From: Carboxylicivirga sediminis | GTDB lineage: Bacteria; Bacteroidota; Bacteroidia; Bacteroidales; Marinilabiliaceae | Reading direction: 5' to 3' | Assembly (NCBI RefSeq): GCF_018156225.1 | Contig: NZ_JAGTAR010000043.1 | Coordinates: forward strand, 1-46,681 | DNA: 46,681 nt | Shown here: piece by piece, positions 1,875-46,231 of the stretch | Numbering within the stretch: the stretch's first letter is position 1 | Layout: the number at the start of each line of letters is the position of its first letter | Position numbers and translations under genes: made by a program | The notes under the pieces: model-generated | Databases searched by the model: none | Seen by the model: the letters and a program-made list of their open reading frames with translations, nothing else | Told to the model about the DNA's origin: nothing

Positions 1875-2645
1875 TTATTTGTTTAAACCTTTAAGGGCTT
1901 CTATTCGACGTGCCTTGATAGTTTTAGCATACCACCGTTGATTATCTCCATAGTTATTGCGTAATCCCTCATCGCCATGGTAAAGGTGTTGAGCTATGGC
2001 ATAAAACTTCAGGTTATAGGCCTTGATGCCTGCATGAATCAGGCGTATGGCAAATTCCTTATCATCTGGTCCTTTGCCCGTCATACTTTCTTCATAGCCA
2101 TTGACTTTATAGGCATCGTCTCGCCAGTAGGCCATATTACAGCCCCTTACACCTTTAACTTTCTTATCATCGTACAGCAGGTGCTGGTGCATAATGGCTA
2201 CAGCCTTACTTCTGAAGCTGGAAAGATGGTCGTACTTGAGTTCCTGACAAAATTGGTCCGTAGCCAGTGCTGATATATCTGTTCTGCGTCCAATGACCAA
2301 TCGGTTGGCCTTGGCAAAAGACAGGTGATCTTTCACAAAATGCCTGTCGCAGATAATGTCACCATCTATCTGAATAATGTATGGATGTGAAGCTAGTGCT
2401 ATGGCTTTATTTCGAATGGCATTGATACGGTAGCCTTTGTCCTCTTGCCAAACGTGTATCAATGGACATGGAAAGTCTGCCTTAAACTGGTTAATGATAG
2501 CTTTGGTGGCTTCACCAGAGCCATCATCGGCCACAATGACTTCATCCGGAAGGTGCGACTGAGTAGCTATGCTTTGCAGACATAGTGATAGTGCTTCAGT
2601 CCAGTTATAGGTGGTTAAGAATAAGCTTACTTTAGGGGCGTTCAT
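1875..2645 (-). CDS. GT2-family glycosyltransferase with galactosyltransferase-type C-terminus
   Basis: A 256-residue inverting GT-A glycosyltransferase. VSLFLTTYNW (6-15), VADDGS (38-43) and the metal-binding D94-G-D96 in QIDGDII are the nucleotide-sugar elements. RGCNMAYWRDDAY near 165-178 and GKGPDDKEFAIRL near 188-200 match the C-terminal domain shared with beta-1,4-galactosyltransferase-like enzymes, where the aspartates lie at the acceptor site. A similar architecture occurs in chondroitin-polymerase-like and LPS glycosyltransferases. It sits 12 bases after the GIN lipoprotein and 2 bases before the GT4 gene. A role in surface glycan synthesis is likely, but donor and acceptor are unknown. 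Confidence 0.87.
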   Translation of the reverse strand: MNAPKVSLFLTTYNWTEALSLCLQSIATQSHLPDEVIVADDGSGEATKAIINQFKADFPCPLIHVWQEDKGYRINAIRNKAIALASHPYIIQIDGDIICDRHFVKDHLSFAKANRLVIGRRTDISALATDQFCQELKYDHLSSFRSKAVAIMHQHLLYDDKKVKGVRGCNMAYWRDDAYKVNGYEESMTGKGPDDKEFAIRLIHAGIKAYNLKFYAIAQHLYHGDEGLRNNYGDNQRWYAKTIKARRIEALKGLNK

Positions 2646-23100: not shown

Positions 23101-24075
23101 ATGAGAACAGGTTTAATCTACTTATTTTTAATATTATCTGGTAACCTGGTGCTTGCGCAGGTTAAGCAAGAGGTGATTACCAAGGTGGATACTTATCCAT
23201 TCAGGTTTAACCATTACGAGCAACTGAGCAAGCGGGTGATGGCCGATTTTGAGGGGGACTACGACCGGGCAGCTGCCATATATACCTGGGTGGCGCGGAA
23301 CATCCAATACGATGCTAAAGCTTTCTTCTCGGGACGGACGATTAAATCAGTCCGATACTCTTATCGTAATGAAGCGGAGAAGATACAAAAGGAGCAAGCT
23401 CTGAGAGAAGAGCTCGCCATGGAGACGCTGAAAAAGAAAAGAGCTGTCTGCCAGGGCTACTCCGAATTATTTCGATTGGTATGCAGGGCATGTGGTATCA
23501 GGTGCGAAGTTATCAGTGGATACTCACGAACAGGGGTGAGTGACATAGGTCAGTCGAAACCCAAAGCAGATCATGCCTGGAATGCCATAATAATTGATAA
23601 TGCATGGCTGTTTGTTGATGCTACGTGGGGTGCCGGCCACGTAAATTATAAAACAAAGCAGTTTGTGCCTGACTTTACGGCGGCCTATTTTGCGGTTGAT
23701 GCTGATATGTTTACATATAATCATTTTCCGGAAGAGCCAGCCTGGAATTATACCAAACTCTCCTTGAAAGACTTTTCGGAACAGCCGCTGGTGTATCATT
23801 CCTTCTTTGGAAAAGGCTTTGAGCTGGTATCCCGTCAAGGAAAGATCACAAAAGCGCGCAAGGGTCAAATTGTTATTGAGCTGAAGGCAACCAGCGATAA
23901 ACAGCACACTTTCTATTATGCCTTTAGAGACATGAAATATATGCAGCCTGCAAGGATTGATGTAAAAGGGAAGCTACACGTTTTAACTATCGACGTGGGC
24001 AACCGGCGCTCGGCATATGTCGATATCATCATTGATGATGAGACGGTGTTGACTTACCAGTTGCAGTTGAGATAG
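23101..24075 (+). CDS. Secreted transglutaminase-like protein
   Basis: A 324-residue exported protein with a transglutaminase/protease-like core. A signal peptide covers residues 1-20 (LIYLFLILSGNLVLAQ). The papain-like catalytic triad is visible: C117 in RAVCQGYSELF, H158 in KADHAWNAI, and D173 in WLFVDATWGAG. This is the arrangement of the KY/cytokinesis-type transglutaminase domain (DUF3857-adjacent families). IYTWVARNIQYD (60-71) is the conserved helix before the core. The C-terminal 110 residues are beta-rich and may bind a target. The family includes peptidases and cross-linkers, so the substrate is unknown. No operon partner is close. Confidence 0.85.
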   Translation: MRTGLIYLFLILSGNLVLAQVKQEVITKVDTYPFRFNHYEQLSKRVMADFEGDYDRAAAIYTWVARNIQYDAKAFFSGRTIKSVRYSYRNEAEKIQKEQALREELAMETLKKKRAVCQGYSELFRLVCRACGIRCEVISGYSRTGVSDIGQSKPKADHAWNAIIIDNAWLFVDATWGAGHVNYKTKQFVPDFTAAYFAVDADMFTYNHFPEEPAWNYTKLSLKDFSEQPLVYHSFFGKGFELVSRQGKITKARKGQIVIELKATSDKQHTFYYAFRDMKYMQPARIDVKGKLHVLTIDVGNRRSAYVDIIIDDETVLTYQLQLR

Positions 24076-24103: not shown

Positions 24104-24335
24104 AGGTCTGCGGGAGCAATTTAGAAATTTGTTTTTCGTCTTGTAGATCTGCAAGAGTAATTTACAAATTTGTTTTTCGACCTGATTGTTGATTAACACG
24201 AAAAACAAATTCGTTTTTGGACTTTACGGTTTGCAGGATTCATAACAAATTTGTTTTTCAACTTTACTGAAGGTGAGGTTCGAAAACAAGTTTGTTATGC
24301 AACATGATTGATGTGCAGGTTGGAAAACAAAAAAT
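24104..24335. repeat. Cluster of short direct and inverted AAATTTGTTTTTCG-type repeats
   Basis: Two tandem 41-bp units lie at 24104-24144 and 24145-24185. Each carries AAATTTGTTTTTCG (24125-24138, 24166-24179). Further copies occur inverted at 24199-24211, direct and overlapping at 24207-24220, direct at 24247-24260, and inverted and degenerate at 24281-24294 and 24322-24335. Arms 24241-24257 and 24283-24299 pair at 16 of 17 positions and would form a hairpin. The cluster is noncoding and follows the transglutaminase gene. It may be a decaying family of dispersed repeats or a structured RNA. Confidence 0.7.
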
Positions 24336-24743: not shown

Positions 24744-27527
24744 ATGGAATACAATTTTAAAGAGTTAGAACAAAAGTGGCAAAAGCACTGGAGCGATAAC
24801 AAAGTTTACAAAGTGGAGGTGGACAACAGTCGCCCCAAGTACTATGTGTTGGATATGTTTCCTTACCCATCAGGAGCAGGCTTGCACGTAGGACATCCAC
24901 TCGGTTACATTGCTTCTGATATCTACAGCCGCTACAAGCGATTAAACGGTTTTAACGTGTTGCACCCAATGGGGTATGATGCCTATGGCTTGCCTGCCGA
25001 GCAGTATGCTATTCAAACAGGTCAGCATCCGGCTATCACCACTGAAAACAACCTGAACCGCTACCGTGAACAGCTCGATAAAATTGGATTCTGTTACGAC
25101 TGGGACCGTGAGGTAAAAACCTGCGATCCTGACTATTACCACTGGACACAGTGGGCTTTCATCCAGATGTTCAAACACTACTACTGCAACCAGGCCAAAC
25201 AGGCACGCCCAATCAGCGAGTTGGTTGAAGTGTTTGGTAAAACCGGTACCGAAGGGCTGGACTTAGCATGTAGTGAAGAACTGAGCTTTACAGCTGAGGA
25301 ATGGAAGGCTAAGAGCGATAAAGAACAGCAGACTATTTTACTCAACTACCGTTTGGCTTACCTGGCCGATACCATGGTGAACTGGTGTCCTGCATTAGGT
25401 ACTGTTCTGGCCAATGATGAGGTGAAGGAAGGTTTGTCTGTGCGTGGTGGTCACCCAGTGGAGCAAAAAGTAATGCGTCAGTGGTCTTTACGTGTGTCGG
25501 CCTATGCTGAGCGTTTGCTGGATGGACTGAATAATGTGGATTGGAGTGATTCGCTGAAAGAAATTCAACGTAACTGGATTGGTCGTTCGGAAGGTGCTGA
25601 AATGACTTTCAAGGTGAAAGAATCGGATGTGGAGATGGAAATTTTCACCACACGTGCCGATACAGTGTATGGTGTGACCTTTATGGTGCTGGCTCCCGAG
25701 AGTGAATTGGTGGACCAGCTGACAACACCTGAGCAACGTGCCGCTGTTGATGCGTATATAGAAGAGACGAAGAAACGTACCGAACGTGAACGTTTGGCCG
25801 AAGTGAAGAAAGTAACCGGCGTTTTCTCCGGAGCTTATGCTATCAACCCTTTAACCAATGAAGAGATTCCGGTTTGGATCAGCGACTATGTGTTGGCGGG
25901 CTATGGAACAGGAGCTATTATGGCGGTGCCGGCGCACGATTCGCGCGACTTTGCATTTGCCAGGCATTTTGAGTTGCCAATTCGACAGGTGGTCATACCG
26001 GTAGGAGCTGAGGAAACTGATCCGATGACCTGGGAAGACTCAATTGACTCCAAAGAAGGTACAATGGTTAATTCGGGCATCATCAACGGACTTGATGTGC
26101 AGGAGGCCATTGCCAAAACAAAAGAATACATTGCCGCAAAAGGCATTGGTAAAGTAAAGGTGAACTATCGCCTGCGCGATGCTATCTTTAGTCGTCAGCG
26201 CTACTGGGGCGAGCCATTCCCTGTATACTATAAGGATGATATGCCTTACATGCTGGACGAGTCTAAATTGCCATTGACTTTGCCTGAGATTGATAAATAT
26301 TTGCCCACTGAGCAAGGCGAGCCGCCATTAGGACGCGCTAAAGGTTGGGAAACTGAAGAGGGCTATCCCCTTGAACTAAATACCATGCCAGGCTTTGCCG
26401 GTTCATCGGCCTACTACCTGCGCTACATGGACCCTAAGAACAAGGAGAAATTAGTAGGTGAGGAAGCTAACAAGTATTGGCAGGATGTTGACCTTTATAT
26501 AGGCGGTACCGAGCACGCTACCGGTCACTTGATTTATTCACGTTTCTGGAACAAGTTTCTGTTCGATATTGGCGAGGTGATTAAAGACGAGCCGTATAAG
26601 AAGCTGATTAATCAGGGTATGATTCAGGGCCGTTCTAATTTTGTGTATCGCAAGAAAGGTACCAACACTTTTGTTTCATACAATCTGCGTAATGAGTATG
26701 ATGTACAGGAAATTCATGTGGATGTTAACATTGTTCGCAATGATGAGCTGGATATGGAAGCGTTTAAAAAGTGGAGCCCCGATTACGCCAATGCTGAGTT
26801 CATCCTTGAAGATGGCAAGTACATTTGTGGCTGGGCCGTTGAAAAAATGTCCAAGTCGATGTACAACGTAGTGAACCCAGATACGATTATTGCTGATTAT
26901 GGTGCTGATACCTTACGTTTGTACGAAATGTTCCTGGGGCCATTAGAGCAATCTAAACCTTGGGATACCAATGGTATTGATGGTGTACATAAATTCCTGC
27001 GCAAAACATGGCGCTTGTTCTACAAAGACGATGCTTTTGTGGTAAGCGATGAAAAAGCGACACCAGATGAACTGAAAGTGCTGCATCGTACCATTAAGAA
27101 GATAACTGAGGATGTAGAACGTTTCTCTTTCAATACCTGTGTAAGTGCATTTATGATTTGTGTGAATGAACTCAATGACCTTAAATGCACCAAGCGTGAG
27201 ATACTTGAGCCATTGCTGGCCTTACTGGCACCATTTGCTCCTCATATGAGTGAAGAGCTTTGGCATGCACTGGGCCACACCACTACCGTGTGCGATACAA
27301 AGTGGCCTCAGTTGAATGAGAGCTATCTGGTGGAGTCTTCGGTGACTTACCCGGTATCGTTCAATGGTAAGATGCGTTTCAAAATCGATCTGCCGGCTGA
27401 CATGAGTAATGCAGACATTGAGAAATCGGTGATGGAGCATGAGTCAGCAGCCAAATGGTTAGAGGGTAAAACGGTGCGCAAGGTGATCATCGTTCCCAAG
27501 AAAATTATCAATATTGTAGTGGGATAA
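24744..27527 (+). CDS. leuS: Leucyl-tRNA synthetase
   Basis: A class I aminoacyl-tRNA synthetase that charges tRNA-Leu in the cytoplasm. The 927-residue protein has the ATP-binding HIGH variant H48-V-G-H51 in [12 protein letters not shown], an editing (CP1) domain with [20 protein letters not shown] near 295-315 and [16 protein letters not shown] near 390-405, and KMSKS at 701-705. The anticodon-binding helical domain and a short C-terminal domain complete it. An insertion around residues 160-200 ([20 protein letters not shown]) is usual in Bacteroidota LeuS. No T-box leader is apparent upstream. Confidence 0.98.
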
Positions 27528-28678: not shown

Positions 28679-29950
28679 ATGACCAAAAAGAAATTATTTA
28701 TTCCCATTATTGCCGTTTTACTTTTAATTCCAGTTGTTTACCTGTTGGTTAACAGGTGTAACCACCCCATATCGCCGGTAACGGAAGAGACTCTTGACTC
28801 ATTGGATGTAATTGAGTTGCCGGAACCTGATTTGTTATATGGTTTGCCGGTTGATTCATTTCAGATAGAAGAAAATACTGTGAAGCGTAATCAGTTTTTA
28901 GCTGATATCTTTCTGAAAGCAGGGGTTGATTATCCAACTATCAATACAATAGTAGAGAAGACAAAACCGGTATTTGATGTGCGCAAGATAAAAGTGGGTA
29001 ATCAATATCATCTGTTTTTTAGCCCTGATACTTTAAAGCAACTCAGGCATTTTGTATATGCCATTGATAATACCGATTACATGGTAGTTACGCTTGGCGA
29101 TTCAATACATGCTTATCGTGATATAAAGGAAACCAGAAGGGAGCTCAAGACAGCATCCGGAGTCATCAATTCGTCCTTGTGGGTAACCATGACGGAGAAT
29201 GATATTAATCCTTTGCTGGCCATTGAGTTATCTGAAATATTTGCCTGGACTGTTGATTTCTTTGGTATTGAAAAGGGCGATAATTTTAAGGTGTATTACA
29301 ATGAACTATATGTGGATAGTGTAAGTATAGGCATTGGAGAGGTACAAGCAGCTGTTTTTCATCATCGGGGGCGGGATTATTATGCATTCAACTATGAGGA
29401 GGATAGTGTTAAGCACTTTTTTGATGAAGAGGGGCAGAGTTTGCGCAAAGCCTTTTTGAAGGCGCCGTTGAAGTTCTCGCGAATTAGCAGTCGCTTCTCA
29501 AATAGCCGTCTGCATCCGGTGTTGAAAATTCGCCGGCCACACCATGGAATCGACTATGCGGCACCTACCGGGACACCAGTTTATGCTTTGGGTGATGGTC
29601 GGGTGATTGCCAGAGACTATCAAAAACGTGGTGGTGGTAATTACATTAAAATTAAGCATAACAGTGTATATACAACTGTTTATATGCACTTACACGGATT
29701 TGCCAAAGGTATTAGTAAAGGTACGCAGGTGCGCCAGGGGCAACTCATCGGTTATGTTGGTTCTACTGGCTTATCCACCGGACCACACCTCGATTTTAGA
29801 GTATATAAAAACGGGCATCCGGTTGATCCTTTAAAGATTGATGCACCGCCGGTTAATCCGGTTAAGGAAGAGCATATGCAAGACTACAAACAATATATTG
29901 TTCCTTTGAAGGCACAGGTTGATGCTATTCCTTTGCCAGTATCAAATTAG
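28679..29950 (+). CDS. Membrane-anchored M23 (LytM-like) endopeptidase homologue
   Basis: A 423-residue protein with an N-terminal membrane anchor (residues about 6-25) and a periplasmic domain. The central part (about 70-250) resembles the OapA/LysM-like and helical region that precedes many M23 domains. Residues about 268-395 form the LytM fold: SSRFSNSRLHPVLKIRRPHHGIDYAAP with H288-xxx-D292, MHLHGFAKG with the catalytic-type histidine, and GPHLDFRVYKNGHPVDP. In canonical M23 enzymes the last motif is HxH. Here the second histidine, a zinc ligand, is replaced by D372 (H370-L-D372). It may use Asp as ligand or be a non-catalytic activator. A terminator follows, so it is monocistronic. Confidence 0.9.
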   Translation: MTKKKLFIPIIAVLLLIPVVYLLVNRCNHPISPVTEETLDSLDVIELPEPDLLYGLPVDSFQIEENTVKRNQFLADIFLKAGVDYPTINTIVEKTKPVFDVRKIKVGNQYHLFFSPDTLKQLRHFVYAIDNTDYMVVTLGDSIHAYRDIKETRRELKTASGVINSSLWVTMTENDINPLLAIELSEIFAWTVDFFGIEKGDNFKVYYNELYVDSVSIGIGEVQAAVFHHRGRDYYAFNYEEDSVKHFFDEEGQSLRKAFLKAPLKFSRISSRFSNSRLHPVLKIRRPHHGIDYAAPTGTPVYALGDGRVIARDYQKRGGGNYIKIKHNSVYTTVYMHLHGFAKGISKGTQVRQGQLIGYVGSTGLSTGPHLDFRVYKNGHPVDPLKIDAPPVNPVKEEHMQDYKQYIVPLKAQVDAIPLPVSN

Positions 29951-29967
29951 AAGAAATGTAATCAAAA

Positions 29968-29998
29968 CAAAAAAAGGAGCTGTACAGCTCCTTTTTTT
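29968..29998. terminator. Bidirectional terminator between the M23 gene and purN
   Basis: GGAGCTGTACAGCTCC (29976-29991) is a perfect palindrome flanked by A-tract and T-tract. It can stop the plus-strand M23 transcript and the minus-strand purN transcript, which converge here. Confidence 0.88.
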
Positions 29999-30070
29999 GT
30001 TGATATACCTTCTGTATACATTTAAAATGTCAAATCTGGTTTTCTGAACGACTATCGGATATATTGCCCG

Positions 30071-30808: not shown

Positions 30809-31045
30809 ATGTCAGACGTTGCATCAAGAGTAAAAGCAATTATCGTAGACAAGTTGGGAGTTGACGAGACTGAAGTTACACCAGAAGCTAGCTTCACTAA
30901 CGACTTAGGAGCTGACTCACTTGACACTGTAGAATTAATTATGGAATTCGAAAAAGAATTCAACATTGCTATTCCAGATGATCAGGCTGAGAATATCGGT
31001 ACAGTAGGTGATGCTGTTGCTTACATCGAAGAAAACGCAAAGTAA
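30809..31045 (+). CDS. acpP: Acyl carrier protein
   Basis: A 78-residue acidic protein that carries growing fatty acids on a phosphopantetheine arm. The attachment serine is S37 in [17 protein letters not shown]. The four-helix sequence runs from [14 protein letters not shown] to [14 protein letters not shown]. Codon bias is strong. It lies 28 bases before fabF and is probably co-transcribed with it and rnc. Confidence 0.98.
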
Positions 31046-31073: not shown

Positions 31074-32321
31074 ATGGAGTTAAAAAGAGTAGTTGTTACG
31101 GGGCTGGGTGCCATTACCCCGCTGGGTAAGACTGTTGAAGAGACATGGACGAACCTGGTTAATGGAGTAAGTGGTGCTGCACCTATTACTCAATTTGACG
31201 CCTCTAAATTCAAAACGCAATTTGCGTGTGAGGTAAAGAACTATGATCCGAAAGAGTATTTTGATCGTAAAGAAGTGCGCAAGCTCGATCTTTACGCTCA
31301 ATATGCTATGATTGCAGCCGATCAGGCCATTGCTGATGCAAAGCTTGATGCCGAAGGAATCGACACTAACGAGGTTGGTGTAATCTGGGGTGCTGGAATC
31401 GGCGGATTGAAGACTTTCCTTGATGAAGTGTCAGGATTTGCTAAAGGGGACGGAACACCACGTTTGAGTCCTTTCTTTATTCCGAAAATGATTGCTGATA
31501 TTGCTCCGGGGCATATTTCTATGAAATATGGTTTCCGCGGACCAAACTTCGGTACTGTTTCGGCTTGTGCTTCATCAACCAACGCAATTGGCGATGCCTA
31601 TAACTTAATTCGTTTAGGTAAAGCCAAAGCATTTGTAACCGGAGGTTCAGAAGCTGCTATTAATGAAGCCGGTGTTGGCGGATTTAATGCTATGCAAGCT
31701 TTGTCAACCCGTAATGATGATCCTAAAACTGCATCTCGTCCATTCGATAAGGAGCGTGATGGATTTGTGATGGGAGAAGGAGGTGCTTCTATTATTCTTG
31801 AAGAATATGAGCATGCCGTGGCCCGTGGTGCCAACATCTACTGTGAAATAGTAGGCGCAGGTATGACAGCCGACGCTCATCACTTAACAGCACCGCATCC
31901 AGAGGGATTGGGAGCAAAGAGGGTTATGGAAAATGCCTTAAAGGATAACAATATTGATCCAACTGAAGTAGATTATATCAATGTACATGGTACATCTACA
32001 CCGTTAGGTGATATTGCTGAAACCAAAGCTATTAAAGAAGTGTTTGGTGAGCATGCCTTTAAATTGAACATCAGTTCAACAAAATCCATGACCGGACACT
32101 TGCTTGGAGCAGCCGGGGCTGTAGAGTCTATGGCTTGTATCCTTGCCATTAAGAACGGTATTGTACCGCCAACCATTAACCACTTTGTAGACGATCCGGA
32201 AATTGACAATGCGCTGAATTTTACATTTGATAAGGCGCAGGAACGTACTGTTAAAGTGGCTTTATCCAATACATTTGGATTCGGTGGTCACAATGCATCT
32301 GTGGTATTTAAAGCATTGTAA
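31074..32321 (+). CDS. fabF: 3-oxoacyl-ACP synthase II
   Basis: A condensing enzyme of fatty-acid elongation; the cytoplasmic dimer condenses malonyl-ACP with acyl-ACP. The 415-residue length is standard. The active-site cysteine is C165 in TVSACASSTNAIGDA. The two catalytic histidines are in INVHGTSTPLGD and MTGHLLGAAGAVE. The C-terminal NTFGFGGHNASVVFK motif is intact. It sits in the conserved acpP-fabF-rnc order, and rnc begins 6 bases after its stop. Confidence 0.98.
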   Translation: MELKRVVVTGLGAITPLGKTVEETWTNLVNGVSGAAPITQFDASKFKTQFACEVKNYDPKEYFDRKEVRKLDLYAQYAMIAADQAIADAKLDAEGIDTNEVGVIWGAGIGGLKTFLDEVSGFAKGDGTPRLSPFFIPKMIADIAPGHISMKYGFRGPNFGTVSACASSTNAIGDAYNLIRLGKAKAFVTGGSEAAINEAGVGGFNAMQALSTRNDDPKTASRPFDKERDGFVMGEGGASIILEEYEHAVARGANIYCEIVGAGMTADAHHLTAPHPEGLGAKRVMENALKDNNIDPTEVDYINVHGTSTPLGDIAETKAIKEVFGEHAFKLNISSTKSMTGHLLGAAGAVESMACILAIKNGIVPPTINHFVDDPEIDNALNFTFDKAQERTVKVALSNTFGFGGHNASVVFKAL

Positions 32322-32327
32322 AAAGCT

Positions 32328-33068
32328 GTGATTAAACCGCTTTTGCACATTATAAAACTTTTCTCTCCAAGGAGGGAAAAGTTTTATAGTTTTATAAAGG
32401 ATGCAACCGGCATAAAGCCTGATAATATTCAAATTTATCAACAGGCTTTTATCCATAAGTCCGCCATGAAAAAGGGGGAGGATAAGCGCTTTGTTAATAA
32501 TGAACGCCTGGAGTTTTTAGGCGATGCAATGCTTGGAGCTATTGTTGCTGACCAATTATACAAGCATTTTCCTACAAAAAACGAGGGATTCCTTACCAAA
32601 ACCCGCTCTCGTATCGTTAATCGTAATCGCCTGAATAAAATTGCACTTAAAATGGGATTAGGCAACTGGATTGATGCACAATCAAAAATTGATATTGCTC
32701 AAACCAGTATATTGGGTGATGCTTTAGAAGCATTGATAGGTGCAGTATATGTAGATAAGGGTTATAAGGATTGCGAAATATTTATTGTTGAGCGTATAAT
32801 TGATCGCTATATCGATCTGAAAGCTATTGCCAAAAAGGATAGTAACTACAAGTCGCTACTTATTGAACTTGGACAAAAGCATAAACGTAGTGTGCATTTC
32901 ATTACGGAAGAAAAGCATCTGACTGACGCTATAGCACCAACTTTTATTTCTCGGGCTGCTGTAGATGGTGAAGTGATTGGTCAGGGAGAAGGCTTTTCCA
33001 AAAAAGAAGCACAGCAAAATGCCGCTAAAATCGCCCTCAGAGTTTTACGGAATAAGGATGCAAATTAA
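32328..33068 (+). CDS. rnc: Ribonuclease III
   Basis: A double-strand-specific endoribonuclease for rRNA maturation and mRNA turnover. The 246-residue protein has the signature NNERLEFLGDAMLGAIVAD near 57-75 with its metal-binding Glu/Asp, a second acidic site near ILGDALEALIGAVYVDKG, and a C-terminal double-stranded RNA-binding domain (about 175-243, ending KKEAQQNAAKIALRVL). The start is GTG at 32328. N-terminal residues IIKLFSPRREKFYSFIKDATGIKPDNI align by eye with the start of other Bacteroidota RNase III proteins, so the N-terminus is real. That makes the strong hairpin at 32351-32388 lie inside the coding sequence. It is the last gene of the acpP-fabF-rnc unit. Confidence 0.95.
   Translation: MIKPLLHIIKLFSPRREKFYSFIKDATGIKPDNIQIYQQAFIHKSAMKKGEDKRFVNNERLEFLGDAMLGAIVADQLYKHFPTKNEGFLTKTRSRIVNRNRLNKIALKMGLGNWIDAQSKIDIAQTSILGDALEALIGAVYVDKGYKDCEIFIVERIIDRYIDLKAIAKKDSNYKSLLIELGQKHKRSVHFITEEKHLTDAIAPTFISRAAVDGEVIGQGEGFSKKEAQQNAAKIALRVLRNKDAN
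32351..32388 (+). promoter_or_regulatory. 18-bp hairpin within the first codons of rnc
   Basis: Bases 32351-32368 are complementary to 32371-32388 at all 18 positions (17 Watson-Crick pairs, one G-U at 32364/32375). Only two bases separate the arms, so the closing pairs open to form the loop. The stem includes codons 9-20 of rnc. RNase III autoregulates its own mRNA in Escherichia coli by cutting a leader stem-loop. A cut here would inactivate the rnc message directly. The sequence AAGGAGG lies in the hairpin at 32369-32375. The regulatory role is inferred. Confidence 0.7.
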
Positions 33069-33140
33069 GTGATTAGCATGCCATTAGAGAAAAGTGCTGT
33101 TAATTAATGTTAATTAGAGAGGATAATCCTTTTAGCCTGC

Positions 33141-33148
33141 TATTTTTG
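33141..33148 (+). promoter_or_regulatory. Putative -7 element of rprXY
   Basis: TATTTTTG is an exact TAnnTTTG match. It ends 5 bases before the rprX ATG, so transcription would start at or very near the start codon, giving a leaderless or nearly leaderless message. A -33 element is not evident. Confidence 0.4.
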
Positions 33149-33153
33149 TTTCT

Positions 33154-34740
33154 ATGAGTAAAAAATTCATTCTTGGGCTAACTATAATAATGGCCATAGC
33201 ATTGGTTGGAATCACATACATTCAGGCCATGTGGATTTTAAATGCTTCAAAGATTGAAGAAGAGCAGTTTGATAAATCTGCCATGCAGGCGCTGGACCAG
33301 GTGGTTGTTCGCTTAGAGAAGGACGAAGACATGCGTTTCGCCCGTAGTCCACAGTTTTCATTTGATAATAGTAATGTACCAGCCAAGCTGCGTAGTGATA
33401 ATAAATATTTTAAGGGGAAAGAAAAAATTGATAATGGTGTTGTTCAGGAAGATATCAGTATTCAGTTTAATTTAAATGCCTCTGGCGTATATAGTTTTTC
33501 TCAATATTTCCGAGACTCACTTGTTACCACTTTTAAAGGCAGGACCCAATACATTAGCAGCGAACGGTCGGATCCGTTTACGGGAGCCATGAGTGCCATT
33601 CAAAATGAGTGGCGGCGTCGTTACAATAAACAGCGTGAGGCACAGGAAAAAGCTTTACTGCAGGATGAACCAATTGAGAATCGTATTGATGTTTTTCGAT
33701 TGGAACAATATATATTTCAGCATCTTGAGGAGAAAGGGATAGTAGTGCCGTTTGAGTTTGCTATCATAAATTCGAAAGGGCAAACAGTGCACCAAACCAA
33801 GAATTATGAAAAGCATAAGCCTTCTGATTTATATTCATCATTGCTATTCCCCAATGACTATCACAAACAAGCTAATTATCTGAAGTTACATTTTCCAGAG
33901 AAGCCAAATCCAATTCTGGAATCTATGGGCTTAGTGGTACCTTCGGCCGCATTCACACTGATTGTGATTTTACTGTCTATTGTTACGATTATTATTATTG
34001 TCAGGCAAAAGCGATTGGATCAGATAAAGAATGATTTTATCAATAACATGACCCATGAATTTAAGACCCCTATTTCAACCATATCGCTGGCATCGCAGAT
34101 GTTAAAAGATGGTTCTGTGGCCAAAACACCCAAGACCTTACAGCACATTTCCGGGGTGATTCAGGATGAAAGTAAACGATTAAGTTTTCAGGTGGAGAAG
34201 GTGCTGCAGATGGCTATCTTTGAGAAAGGCAAGTCGGGGCTTAAGCTTAAGCGATTGGATGTAAACGATTTGATACATCATGTAACCAATAACTTCCGTA
34301 TTAAGGTTGAGAATCAGCAAGGTAAAATATTTGAACGACTGGAAGCAAAAAACAGCATTATTACCGTAGATGAGGTGCATTTTACAAATGTTATTTATAA
34401 CTTGCTCGACAATGCCGTTAAATACAGGAAAGGGGCTCCTGTGCTTTATGTAAAAACATGGAACAAAAACAATGGAATCGTTATTTCTGTTAAAGATAAT
34501 GGCATGGGGATATCAAAGGATAACCTCAAACGAATATTTGAAAAATTTTATCGCGTTCCAACGGGCAATGTGCATAATGTAAAAGGCTTCGGATTAGGCC
34601 TTGCATATGTAAAAAAAATCATTGATGACCATGGTGGTCAGATTTCCGTTGAGAGCGAAATAGAAGTTGGCACAAAATTTGACATTTTCCTACCTCTAAA
34701 AAACACAAAAGAATGGAAAAAGAATATAAAATCCTCCTAA
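33154..34740 (+). CDS. rprX: Sensor histidine kinase RprX-like
   Basis: A 528-residue inner-membrane sensor kinase. Helix 1 (4-29) and helix 2 (about 259-285) enclose a periplasmic sensor domain of about 230 residues with no recognised fold. DFINNMTHEFKTPISTI holds the phospho-accepting H301. The ATPase domain has NVIYNLLDNAVKY (N box), VKDNGMGISKDNLKRIFEKFYRV (G1/F boxes) and VKGFGLGLAYVKKIIDDHGG (G2). The partner gene rprY overlaps the last 28 bases, as in other Bacteroidota where the pair is named RprX/RprY. The stimulus is unknown; in related species the pair has been linked to stress and metabolic control. Confidence 0.88.
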   Translation: MSKKFILGLTIIMAIALVGITYIQAMWILNASKIEEEQFDKSAMQALDQVVVRLEKDEDMRFARSPQFSFDNSNVPAKLRSDNKYFKGKEKIDNGVVQEDISIQFNLNASGVYSFSQYFRDSLVTTFKGRTQYISSERSDPFTGAMSAIQNEWRRRYNKQREAQEKALLQDEPIENRIDVFRLEQYIFQHLEEKGIVVPFEFAIINSKGQTVHQTKNYEKHKPSDLYSSLLFPNDYHKQANYLKLHFPEKPNPILESMGLVVPSAAFTLIVILLSIVTIIIIVRQKRLDQIKNDFINNMTHEFKTPISTISLASQMLKDGSVAKTPKTLQHISGVIQDESKRLSFQVEKVLQMAIFEKGKSGLKLKRLDVNDLIHHVTNNFRIKVENQQGKIFERLEAKNSIITVDEVHFTNVIYNLLDNAVKYRKGAPVLYVKTWNKNNGIVISVKDNGMGISKDNLKRIFEKFYRVPTGNVHNVKGFGLGLAYVKKIIDDHGGQISVESEIEVGTKFDIFLPLKNTKEWKKNIKSS

Positions 34741-45127: not shown

Positions 45128-45157
45128 TAAAGATATAAATGAAATAGCTGATGCAAA
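45128..45157 (-). promoter_or_regulatory. Putative ruvA-sprA promoter
   Basis: On the minus strand TTTG (45157-45154), an 18-base spacer and TATCTTTA (45135-45128) approximate the Bacteroidota pattern with one mismatch. The -33 box lies in the loop of the thiL terminator hairpin. The start would be about 15 bases before the ruvA ATG. Confidence 0.4.
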
Positions 45158-45178
45158 AACTTTTCACATCAGCTATTT
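45142..45178 (-). terminator. Hairpin after thiL
   Basis: AAATAGCTGATG (45142-45153) and CATCAGCTATTT (45167-45178) are perfect 12-base complements with a 13-base loop, starting a few bases past the thiL stop. The U-run on the minus strand is weak, so termination may be partial. Confidence 0.65.
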
Positions 45179-45181
45179 TAT

Positions 45182-46231
45182 TTACTGTTTATTTTTTAGT
45201 GGATTCCAGCCCTGAGCCTGTAATTCCACTTCCTGATCGGCATTGGTAACCAAGTAGCTCCCTTTGCTTTCTTCGGTAATATGTCCTATGATGTAAATAT
45301 TCACATCGCCTGCATCTTTAAATTTCTCATAATCGCTCTGGCTGATTGTAAAGAGTAGCTCATAGTCTTCGCCGCCATTCAGTGCCGTCACCAGCGGGTT
45401 AATGCCCATTTCTTCGGCCAGCATAGCTGTTGTGGGGTCGATAGGAATCTTGTTTTCATATACCCGACAGCCTGTTTTTGACTGAGAACATATATGTATC
45501 AGTTCGCTTGATAAGCCATCTGAAATATCTATCATAGCTGTTGGTACTACCTCCAGTTTCTGCAGTAGTTCTGTTACTTCTTTACGTGCTTCTGGTTTAA
45601 GCTGGCGACCCAAAATATAATCGTATCCGCTCAAATCGGGTTGAACACCTGGGTTATCTGAATATACTCTCTTTTCACGCTCCAATAGTTGCAAACCCAT
45701 ATATGCACCACCTAAATCACCTGAAACGCAAATGAGATCATTGGGTTTAGCTCCATTGCGGTAGGTTAATTTGCTGGCATCAGCCTCTCCCATGGCGGTG
45801 ACGCTTATGGTAAGACCGGTTAATGAAGAGCTGGTGTCGCCACCAACCAAATCAACATTATAATAGTCACAAGCTGCATAAATGCCCTCGTAAAGTTCGT
45901 CCAATGCTTCAACCGACATCTTTGAGCTTAAGCCAAGTGACACGGTAATTTGCTTCGGGGTTGCATTCATGGCATAAACATCACTAACGTTAACCACTAC
46001 CGCTTTATAGCCAAGGTGCTTAAGTGGGGTGTAGGTTAAGTCAAAATGAATGCCTTCTAATAAAAGGTCTGTTGTAACAACTGTTTTCTTATCGCTAAAA
46101 TCTAACACAGCCGCATCGTCGCCAACGCCCTTAATGGTTGCAGGGTGCTTTAATTTAATATTATCTGTCAGATGGTGTATTAATCCAAACTCTCCTAATT
46201 GTCCTAACTCCGTTTTTTTAACCTCGCTCAT
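45182..46231 (-). CDS. thiL: Thiamine-monophosphate kinase
   Basis: A cytoplasmic enzyme that phosphorylates thiamine monophosphate to thiamine diphosphate with ATP. The 349-residue length fits. GVGDDAAVLDFSDKKTVVTTDLLLEGIHFDL near 36-66 is the ATP/metal-binding region of the PurM/ThiL fold. VVNVSDVYAMNATPKQITVSLGL, VDLVGGDTSSS, CVSGDLGGAYMGLQLL and MIDISDGLSSELIHIC are the further conserved acidic motifs. NGGEDYELLFT is near the C-terminus. It is the first gene of the minus-strand thiL-ruvA-sprA run but has its own terminator-like hairpin. No thiamine riboswitch is seen upstream. Confidence 0.96.
   Translation of the reverse strand: MSEVKKTELGQLGEFGLIHHLTDNIKLKHPATIKGVGDDAAVLDFSDKKTVVTTDLLLEGIHFDLTYTPLKHLGYKAVVVNVSDVYAMNATPKQITVSLGLSSKMSVEALDELYEGIYAACDYYNVDLVGGDTSSSLTGLTISVTAMGEADASKLTYRNGAKPNDLICVSGDLGGAYMGLQLLEREKRVYSDNPGVQPDLSGYDYILGRQLKPEARKEVTELLQKLEVVPTAMIDISDGLSSELIHICSQSKTGCRVYENKIPIDPTTAMLAEEMGINPLVTALNGGEDYELLFTISQSDYEKFKDAGDVNIYIIGHITEESKGSYLVTNADQEVELQAQGWNPLKNKQ

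What the first reader, a model, noticed from the sequence alone, without database searches (positions are those of the whole stretch)
32351..32388. RNase III gene carries a near-perfect 18-bp hairpin inside its own first codons
The arms at 32351-32368 and 32371-32388 pair at every position, with one G-U. The paired region encodes residues 9-20 (KLFSPRREKFY part) of rnc. The N-terminal protein sequence matches other Bacteroidota RNase III by eye, so this is real coding sequence. RNase III cuts its own leader stem-loop in E. coli. Here the substrate would be within the open reading frame, so cutting would destroy the message. The hairpin also hides an AAGGAGG run. It could instead act as a partial attenuator between fabF and rnc. 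Selection for base pairing and for protein sequence would have to coexist, which is unusual.
Basis: partly seen in the sequence, partly recalled or inferred. Interest (0 to 1): 0.75.

Follow-up and report, generated by a model that had tools for sequence, protein, structure and literature searches.

The report
RNase III gene's self-targeting coding hairpin
The gene for the RNA-cutting enzyme RNase III carries, inside its own first codons, a long RNA hairpin that many Bacteroidales keep by matched mutations even when this changes the protein, so the enzyme probably cuts its own message there to limit its own amount; no cut has been measured.

Summary
The hairpin is 19 bp with a 4-nt loop (32349-32390, rnc codons 8-21). 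Its pairing is conserved: in 30 aligned family members (27 distinct) 97.7% of cells pair and 13 of 18 pairs change on both sides while staying paired. All 34 family loci beat synonymous-codon shuffles. The mirror centre sits at the same codon boundary in Marinilabiliaceae, Bacteroides, Phocaeicola, Dysgonomonas, Draconibacterium and others: 60 of 79 named loci, 39 of 114 loci from other families of the order. Of those 114, 17 have instead a different rnc hairpin 45 nt downstream and 58 have neither. Within the family G.U (52) far outnumbers A.C (1), so the sense mRNA is what is selected. Nearly every compensating change alters the protein. The window's genome has one strong copy; Rfam has no match.

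Best explanation (inferred): RNase III cuts this hairpin in its own mRNA and so limits its own level, as shown for S. aureus and S. coelicolor at other coding sites. A transcription attenuator is the main rival and is not excluded (U-rich 3' side in many loci). DNA palindrome, ribosome-site hiding and chance are poorly supported. Cleavage is untested. New variant of a known kind.

The parts
32349..32390 (+). Conserved hairpin A in the rnc coding sequence: 5' arm 32349-32367, loop 32368-32371, 3' arm 32372-32390; mirror centre between 32369 and 32370
   Evidence: Fold; 13 of 18 pairs changed on both sides in relatives; RNAalifold gives the same helix plus one outer pair; only strong match of the covariance model in the genome, 67.9 bits
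32328..33068 (+). rnc, ribonuclease III, 246 aa, GTG start 42 nt before the hairpin centre
   Evidence: TIGR02191 above cut-off, residues 25-238; ORF
32328..32399 (+). N-terminal segment (residues 1-24) that lies before the matched part of the RNase III family profile and contains the hairpin-coding residues 8-21
   Evidence: Profile match starts at residue 25
31074..32321 (+). fabF, upstream gene; its stop codon ends 6 nt before the rnc GTG
   Evidence: TIGR03150; fabF C-terminal motif upstream of rnc in 138 of 138 loci called as hairpin A
30809..31045 (+). acpP, acyl carrier protein, upstream of fabF; co-transcription with rnc is presumed
   Evidence: NF002151

Best explanation
The hairpin is a post-transcriptional operator for RNase III that is also translated. 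In rnc mRNA (presumably acpP-fabF-rnc), codons 8-21 fold into a helix of about 20 bp just downstream of the initiating ribosome. When free RNase III exceeds its other substrates it binds and cuts this helix, which splits the rnc reading frame and starts decay of the rnc part, so that enzyme synthesis falls; ribosomes moving through the segment would open the helix and compete with cutting. The N-terminal segment is probably held in its present form largely by the RNA pairing. SHOWN here: the conserved pairing, its location, sense-strand selection within the family, amino-acid-changing compensation, one strong copy in the genome. INFERRED: cutting by RNase III, feedback, competition with ribosomes.
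For: Pairing conserved with covariation (97.7% of 486 cells paired; 57 doubly changed cells against 13.8 in shuffles, 0 of 500). 34 of 34 family loci beat synonymous shuffles (at most 1 of 150 as good). Mirror centre fixed at one codon boundary (mean pairs of 16: family 14.8, named loci 12.7, order 9.9; profile means 6.1-6.2). Hairpins of score 27 or more, over up to 540 nt around the anchor of 114 order loci, lie at two rnc coding sites (33 at A, 15 at B) and near the fabF/rnc junction (4), none elsewhere. In the family 52 G.U against 1 A.C. Stem median 20 bp, the same size class as stems flanking 23S (18 pairs of 19 positions) and 16S (17 of 17) rRNA in a same-genus genome. One strong model match in the genome, in the gene for the enzyme that cuts such helices. 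Precedent: S. aureus RNase III cuts its own mRNA in the CDS (PMC3386247); S. coelicolor has one of two sites in the rnc cistron (PMC10126417).
Against: No cleavage, RNA-seq or mutant data. 58 of 114 order loci and 18 of 79 named loci have neither hairpin by the energy test (a few of them, such as L177, L186 and L190, do have A by stem score), so the control is not universal. Outside the family the strand asymmetry is weak (110 G.U to 65 A.C at the fixed register). The 3' side is U-rich in many loci, which a terminator would also need. One family genome (G462, L287) folds only weakly. A cut near the start of an ORF could be protected by ribosomes. Sequence resemblance between the hairpin and the rRNA stems is no more than AT-richness.
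Confidence: 0.66

Rival explanations
1. Another RNA-level role: the helix, about 20 nt after the start codon, slows or gates early translation (for example coupling rnc to fabF translation or holding a weak GUG start low), or is the target of a different nuclease or RNA-binding protein. RNase III is not involved.
For: Start codon lies exactly 42 nt before the centre in 110 of 138 hairpin-A loci, 91 of them GTG; fabF is directly upstream.
Against: Site B lies 45 nt further into the gene, so a fixed distance to the start is not essential if B does the same job; the model finds one strong site in the genome, in the gene of a dsRNA-cutting enzyme.
Confidence: 0.14
2. Transcription attenuator: a partial intrinsic terminator between fabF and rnc, perhaps relieved by ribosomes translating rnc.
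For: Counting from an inner stem of at least 5 pairs with 3 G-C, 14 of 34 family and 77 of 104 other hairpins have 6 or more U in an 8-nt tail. The span 8-36 nt after the centre is more U-rich in loci with A (mean best 6.09 of 8) than in their synonymous shuffles (5.50) or in loci without A (4.81).
Against: After the full stem only 2 of 34 and 6 of 103 have 6 or more U, so the U bases are mostly inside the conserved helix; pairing is conserved through these outer A-U pairs too; the window's own tail has 5 of 8 and the scan did not flag it; a helix of about 20 bp with few G-C pairs is longer than terminators need (general knowledge). Part of the U-richness comes from Phe and Tyr codons, since shuffles keep most of it.
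Confidence: 0.13
3. Quasi-palindrome correction by template switching during replication makes both arms match without selection.
For: Would also give paired changes on both arms.
Against: It should remove G.U and A.C mismatches alike; in the family 52 G.U against 1 A.C remain. It does not explain the same codon position over many families, nor 0 of 90 such hairpins in the rest of rnc.
Confidence: 0.04
4. A palindromic DNA site for a protein.
For: Near-perfect palindrome in DNA.
Against: Arm sequence varies while pairing stays; in the family G.U is tolerated and A.C is not; the covariance model prefers the sense strand (67.9 against 45.9 bits).
Confidence: 0.02
5. By-product of a conserved peptide (K-L-L / K-K-F gives self-complementary codons) or chance.
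For: The B-site peptide and Lys/Leu/Phe codons do raise the shuffled mean in some loci (null means to about 20).
Against: Synonymous shuffles keep the peptide and lose the hairpin (family mean z -5.9); amino acids change together with pairing.
Confidence: 0.01

Closest known systems
S. aureus rnc mRNA, RNase III cleavage in the coding sequence (Lioliou et al. 2012, PMC3386247; passages read, author name recalled)
   Same: RNase III target helix within its own ORF; proposed negative feedback; reported there as conserved among staphylococci
   Different: There cutting is shown, at U+296 in a long irregular helix; here the helix is at codons 8-21, near-perfect, found across many Bacteroidales families, and cutting is unproven
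S. coelicolor absB/rnc operon autoregulation (Xu et al. 2008; not held, known from passages of PMC10126417 and PMC2936110)
   Same: One of two RNase III sites lies in the rnc cistron
   Different: Cuts were mapped in loops of stem-loops and the second site lies upstream; homology of position was not examined
E. coli rncO, leader stem-loop of rnc (Matsunaga et al. 1996; seen only as citations and short statements in PMC3386247 and PMC3997798)
   Same: RNase III operator near the 5' end of rnc
   Different: Untranslated leader in E. coli; translated here, right after fabF

Membership tests
RNase III-autoregulated rnc mRNA | A stem-loop of RNase III-substrate size in the rnc transcript | tested here: met
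   19 bp in the window; median 20 bp in 137 loci, the window's included
RNase III-autoregulated rnc mRNA | Structure under selection in relatives | tested here: met
RNase III-autoregulated rnc mRNA | Cleavage of that stem-loop by RNase III | not testable with these tools
   Needs in vitro cleavage or end mapping
RNase III-autoregulated rnc mRNA | rnc mRNA or protein rises when RNase III is inactive | not testable with these tools
   Needs a mutant
E. coli rncO (untranslated leader operator) | Stem-loop upstream of the start codon | tested here: not met
   Hairpin starts 21 nt after the first base of GTG, inside the ORF
Intrinsic terminator or attenuator | G-C-containing stem followed by a U-tract | tested here: inconclusive
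   Not flagged in the window; 8 of 137 with 6 or more U after the full stem, but 91 of 138 after an inner stem, more than synonymous shuffles give
Ribosome-site sequestering hairpin | Start codon or ribosome site inside the helix | tested here: not met
   Start at 32328, helix from 32349; the AAGGAGG is not conserved
Any Rfam 15 family | Score above gathering threshold | tested here: not met
   12 matches up to E 5 in 31900-33200, all below threshold

The most novel reading that the evidence does not exclude
A translated RNA operator that is ancestral to a large part of Bacteroidales: the N-terminal segment of RNase III there exists in its present form because it encodes the enzyme's own brake, its amino acids follow the RNA pairing, and in other lineages the brake has moved to a second place in the same gene (site B) instead of being lost.
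Probability: 0.46. Interest if true: 0.78.

Novelty: new variant of a known kind. Interest (0 to 1): 0.62.

Why it matters
If true, Bacteroidales, gut Bacteroides among them, have a self-control circuit for RNase III of which I found nothing in print (searches; the library holds only open-licence papers). It is also a clear case in which an RNA structure, not the protein, appears to dictate amino acids at a protein's start, with an exact position and simple tests. It would add to the evidence that RNase III autoregulation sits at different sites in different bacteria.

Tried and rejected
Rejected or weak: ribosome-site hiding, DNA palindrome and template switching (strand asymmetry in the family), dispersed repeat (one strong match in the genome; next distinct place 25.7 bits, E 0.3; 150 of 4084 first-look candidates were scored), Rfam families (the best, MIR5148 on the minus strand, 27.7 of 93.5 bits, is what I would expect of any near-perfect hairpin).

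Led nowhere: sequence mimicry of rRNA processing stems (similar length, no convincing sequence likeness). A tree test of whether hairpins A and B replace each other: 79 columns, 81 of 141 inner branches unresolved, 2 usable pairs, no verdict. Searches for RNase III work in Bacteroides or Bacteroidetes: nothing relevant.

Limits: the first score (ungapped stems) misses bulged hairpins such as that of B. fragilis L214. The energy test covers 250 of 268 loci: 16 lack the G..P anchor (15 of them from other classes of the phylum) and 2 (L040, L236) do not reach far enough upstream. For other classes the anchor-free test found 18 of 19 without a significant hairpin. In other orders of the class the mirror profile has no clear peak at A (best 8.0 at another place, 7.6 one nt from A). 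L168 and L176 had no motif and were dropped. The 114 order loci are a choice of mine from capped lists, mostly one or two per family. For alignment A2 I left out 4 of 34 family loci with another codon number or register (L023, L024, L029, L031). fabF control blocks pass the 1% level more often than expected (9 of 209), so single z-scores should not be over-read.

Full report
WHAT IS THERE. The gene order is acpP - fabF - rnc - sensor kinase. rnc starts with GTG at 32328, 6 nt after the fabF stop. Codons 8-21 form a 19-bp helix with a 4-nt loop at 32349-32390.

IS IT MORE THAN CHANCE. With the protein and codon usage kept and synonymous codons shuffled, the stem score of 39 is never reached (0 of 300; mean 16.3). 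In the same test the other 29 ORFs of 150 aa or more that I took from the window score at most 29; 0 of 90 blocks in the rest of rnc and 9 of 209 blocks of fabF from 30 relatives pass the 1% level, the best at 28.

IS IT CONSERVED. Of 60 genomes near the window, 56 have rnc. All 34 family members among these keep a hairpin at this place by the energy test (33 of 34 by the ungapped score). In 30 aligned members (27 distinct) 97.7% of cells pair; 13 of 18 pairs show changes on both sides; 57 doubly changed cells against 13.8 in shuffles; sliding the partner by one column drops pairing to about 64%. RNAalifold finds the same helix unprompted, with one more outer pair. A covariance model from these finds one strong site in the window's genome, 67.9 bits on the sense strand and 45.9 on the other (next distinct place 25.7 bits, E 0.3), and matches 61 of 71 family genomes at E 0.01 (in G029 the match lies on another contig than rnc, and I did not check each match against rnc). 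Of the other 10, 6 have no detectable rnc; 3 of the remaining 4 have the hairpin in a form one codon shorter and 1 folds weakly.

HOW FAR DOES IT REACH. Without aligning DNA, I counted mirror pairs around every position relative to the Gly of the GFxP motif. The best centre is exactly 13 codons upstream in the family (14.8 of 16), in the named loci (12.7) and in the order (9.9), against profile means of 6.1-6.2; in other orders of the class there is no clear peak there. By synonymous-shuffle energies 60 of 79 named loci have it, among them Bacteroides, Phocaeicola, Hoylesella, Dysgonomonas, Draconibacterium, Marinifilum and Labilibaculum. B. fragilis (L214) has it with a one-base bulge. In the order 39 of 114 have it, and 5 of 19 in other orders of the class. 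Outside the class, 18 of 19 loci show no significant hairpin.

A SECOND SITE. 20 of 114 order loci, 17 of them without A, have a different strong hairpin centred 45 nt downstream, typically in the codons of a peptide like KNIFGFYPGNIF. When all hairpins of score 27 or more are listed over up to 540 nt around the anchor in those 114 loci, they fall at A (33), at B (15) and near the fabF/rnc junction (4), with none elsewhere. That reads as turnover of one function within one gene, but the tree could not test whether A and B replace each other. 58 of the 114 have neither by the energy test.

WHICH MOLECULE. In the family, at the true register, there are 52 G.U and 1 A.C cells of 486; in slid registers the two are of the same order (for example 78 to 60). 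G.U on the sense strand would be A.C on the antisense, so the sense RNA is what is selected there. Outside the family the fixed register gives 110 to 65, and at site B 24 to 12, which decides nothing (bulges and loops put many cells out of register).

RNA OVER PROTEIN. Because the mirror centre is a codon boundary, third positions pair with first positions and second with second. Among all pairwise double changes in A2 none is synonymous on both sides: 768 change the amino acid on both sides and 415 on one (pairwise counts, not independent events). In L008 a Leu-to-Arg and a Lys-to-Thr difference keep one pair together. The segment lies before the matched part of the RNase III family profile, which begins at residue 25, and this may be why it can follow the RNA.

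HOW IT MOST LIKELY WORKS. RNase III cuts long helices (established knowledge). The helix is a median 20 bp in 34 family loci and in 103 others, in the same size class as stems around 23S (18 pairs of 19 positions) and 16S rRNA (17 of 17) in a same-genus genome (that RNase III cuts these two is inference). The start codon is 42 nt before the centre in 110 of 138 hairpin-A loci, 91 with GTG, so the helix begins about where an initiating ribosome ends (inference from the known footprint). I propose feedback: surplus RNase III cuts its own reading frame. S. aureus does this at another coding site (PMC3386247, passages), and S. coelicolor has one of two sites in the rnc cistron (PMC10126417, passages). 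The cut itself is not shown here.

THE MAIN RIVAL. An attenuator is not excluded. After the full stem a U-rich tail (6 of 8) is rare (8 of 137), but after a shorter inner stem 91 of 138 have one, and the 3' side is somewhat more U-rich than synonymous shuffles give (6.09 against 5.50). Against it, those U bases are mostly paired in the conserved helix, and the window's own tail has 5 of 8. In vitro transcription and 3'-end mapping would decide.

WHAT IS NEW. I found no report of this element: no Rfam match above threshold, no mention of RNase III in the main text of a comparative survey of structured RNAs (PMC2864571, term search), and nothing in literature searches of an open-licence library. 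It is a widely conserved and translated variant of a known kind of control.

Noticed in passing
window 1878-2645 (-): Another ORF has a strong hairpin in its first 60 codons (score 29, 0 of 300 synonymous shuffles as good). Not identified.
   Followed up: no
window 29966-30001: Perfect 18-bp inverted repeat with A/T tracts between the convergent ORFs ending at 29950 and 30071; looks like a two-way terminator.
   Followed up: no
window 24164-24306: Two inverted repeats (34 nt at 76% and 16 nt at 94% complementary) sharing an ACAAATTTGTTTTTC motif between ORFs 23101-24072 and 24744-27524.
   Followed up: no
window 45136-45184: 24-nt inverted repeat, 88% complementary, between two minus-strand ORFs.
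   Followed up: no
L039, L043, L048, L078, L092, L093, L095, L120, L122, L124, L125 and others: Hairpin B, a second coding hairpin in rnc, 45 nt downstream of A, in lineages mostly without A.
   Followed up: partly
L138, L142, L144, L148: In loci from another order (flavobacteria-like by memory) a shorter significant hairpin lies at about the A site (in L138 one nt from the A centre), perhaps the same element; L140 has a like stem that is not significant.
   Followed up: partly
L046, L069, L188: Three loci without A or B have a strong hairpin near the fabF/rnc junction, roughly where E. coli has its leader operator.
   Followed up: no
G026, G028, G457-G460: Six family genomes show no rnc by protein search, including one 97% and one 95% complete: loss or assembly gap.
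   Followed up: no
rnc start codon, 138 hairpin-A loci: GTG stands at the presumed start in 91 of 138, TTG in 12 and ATG in 7: a conserved weak start.
   Followed up: partly
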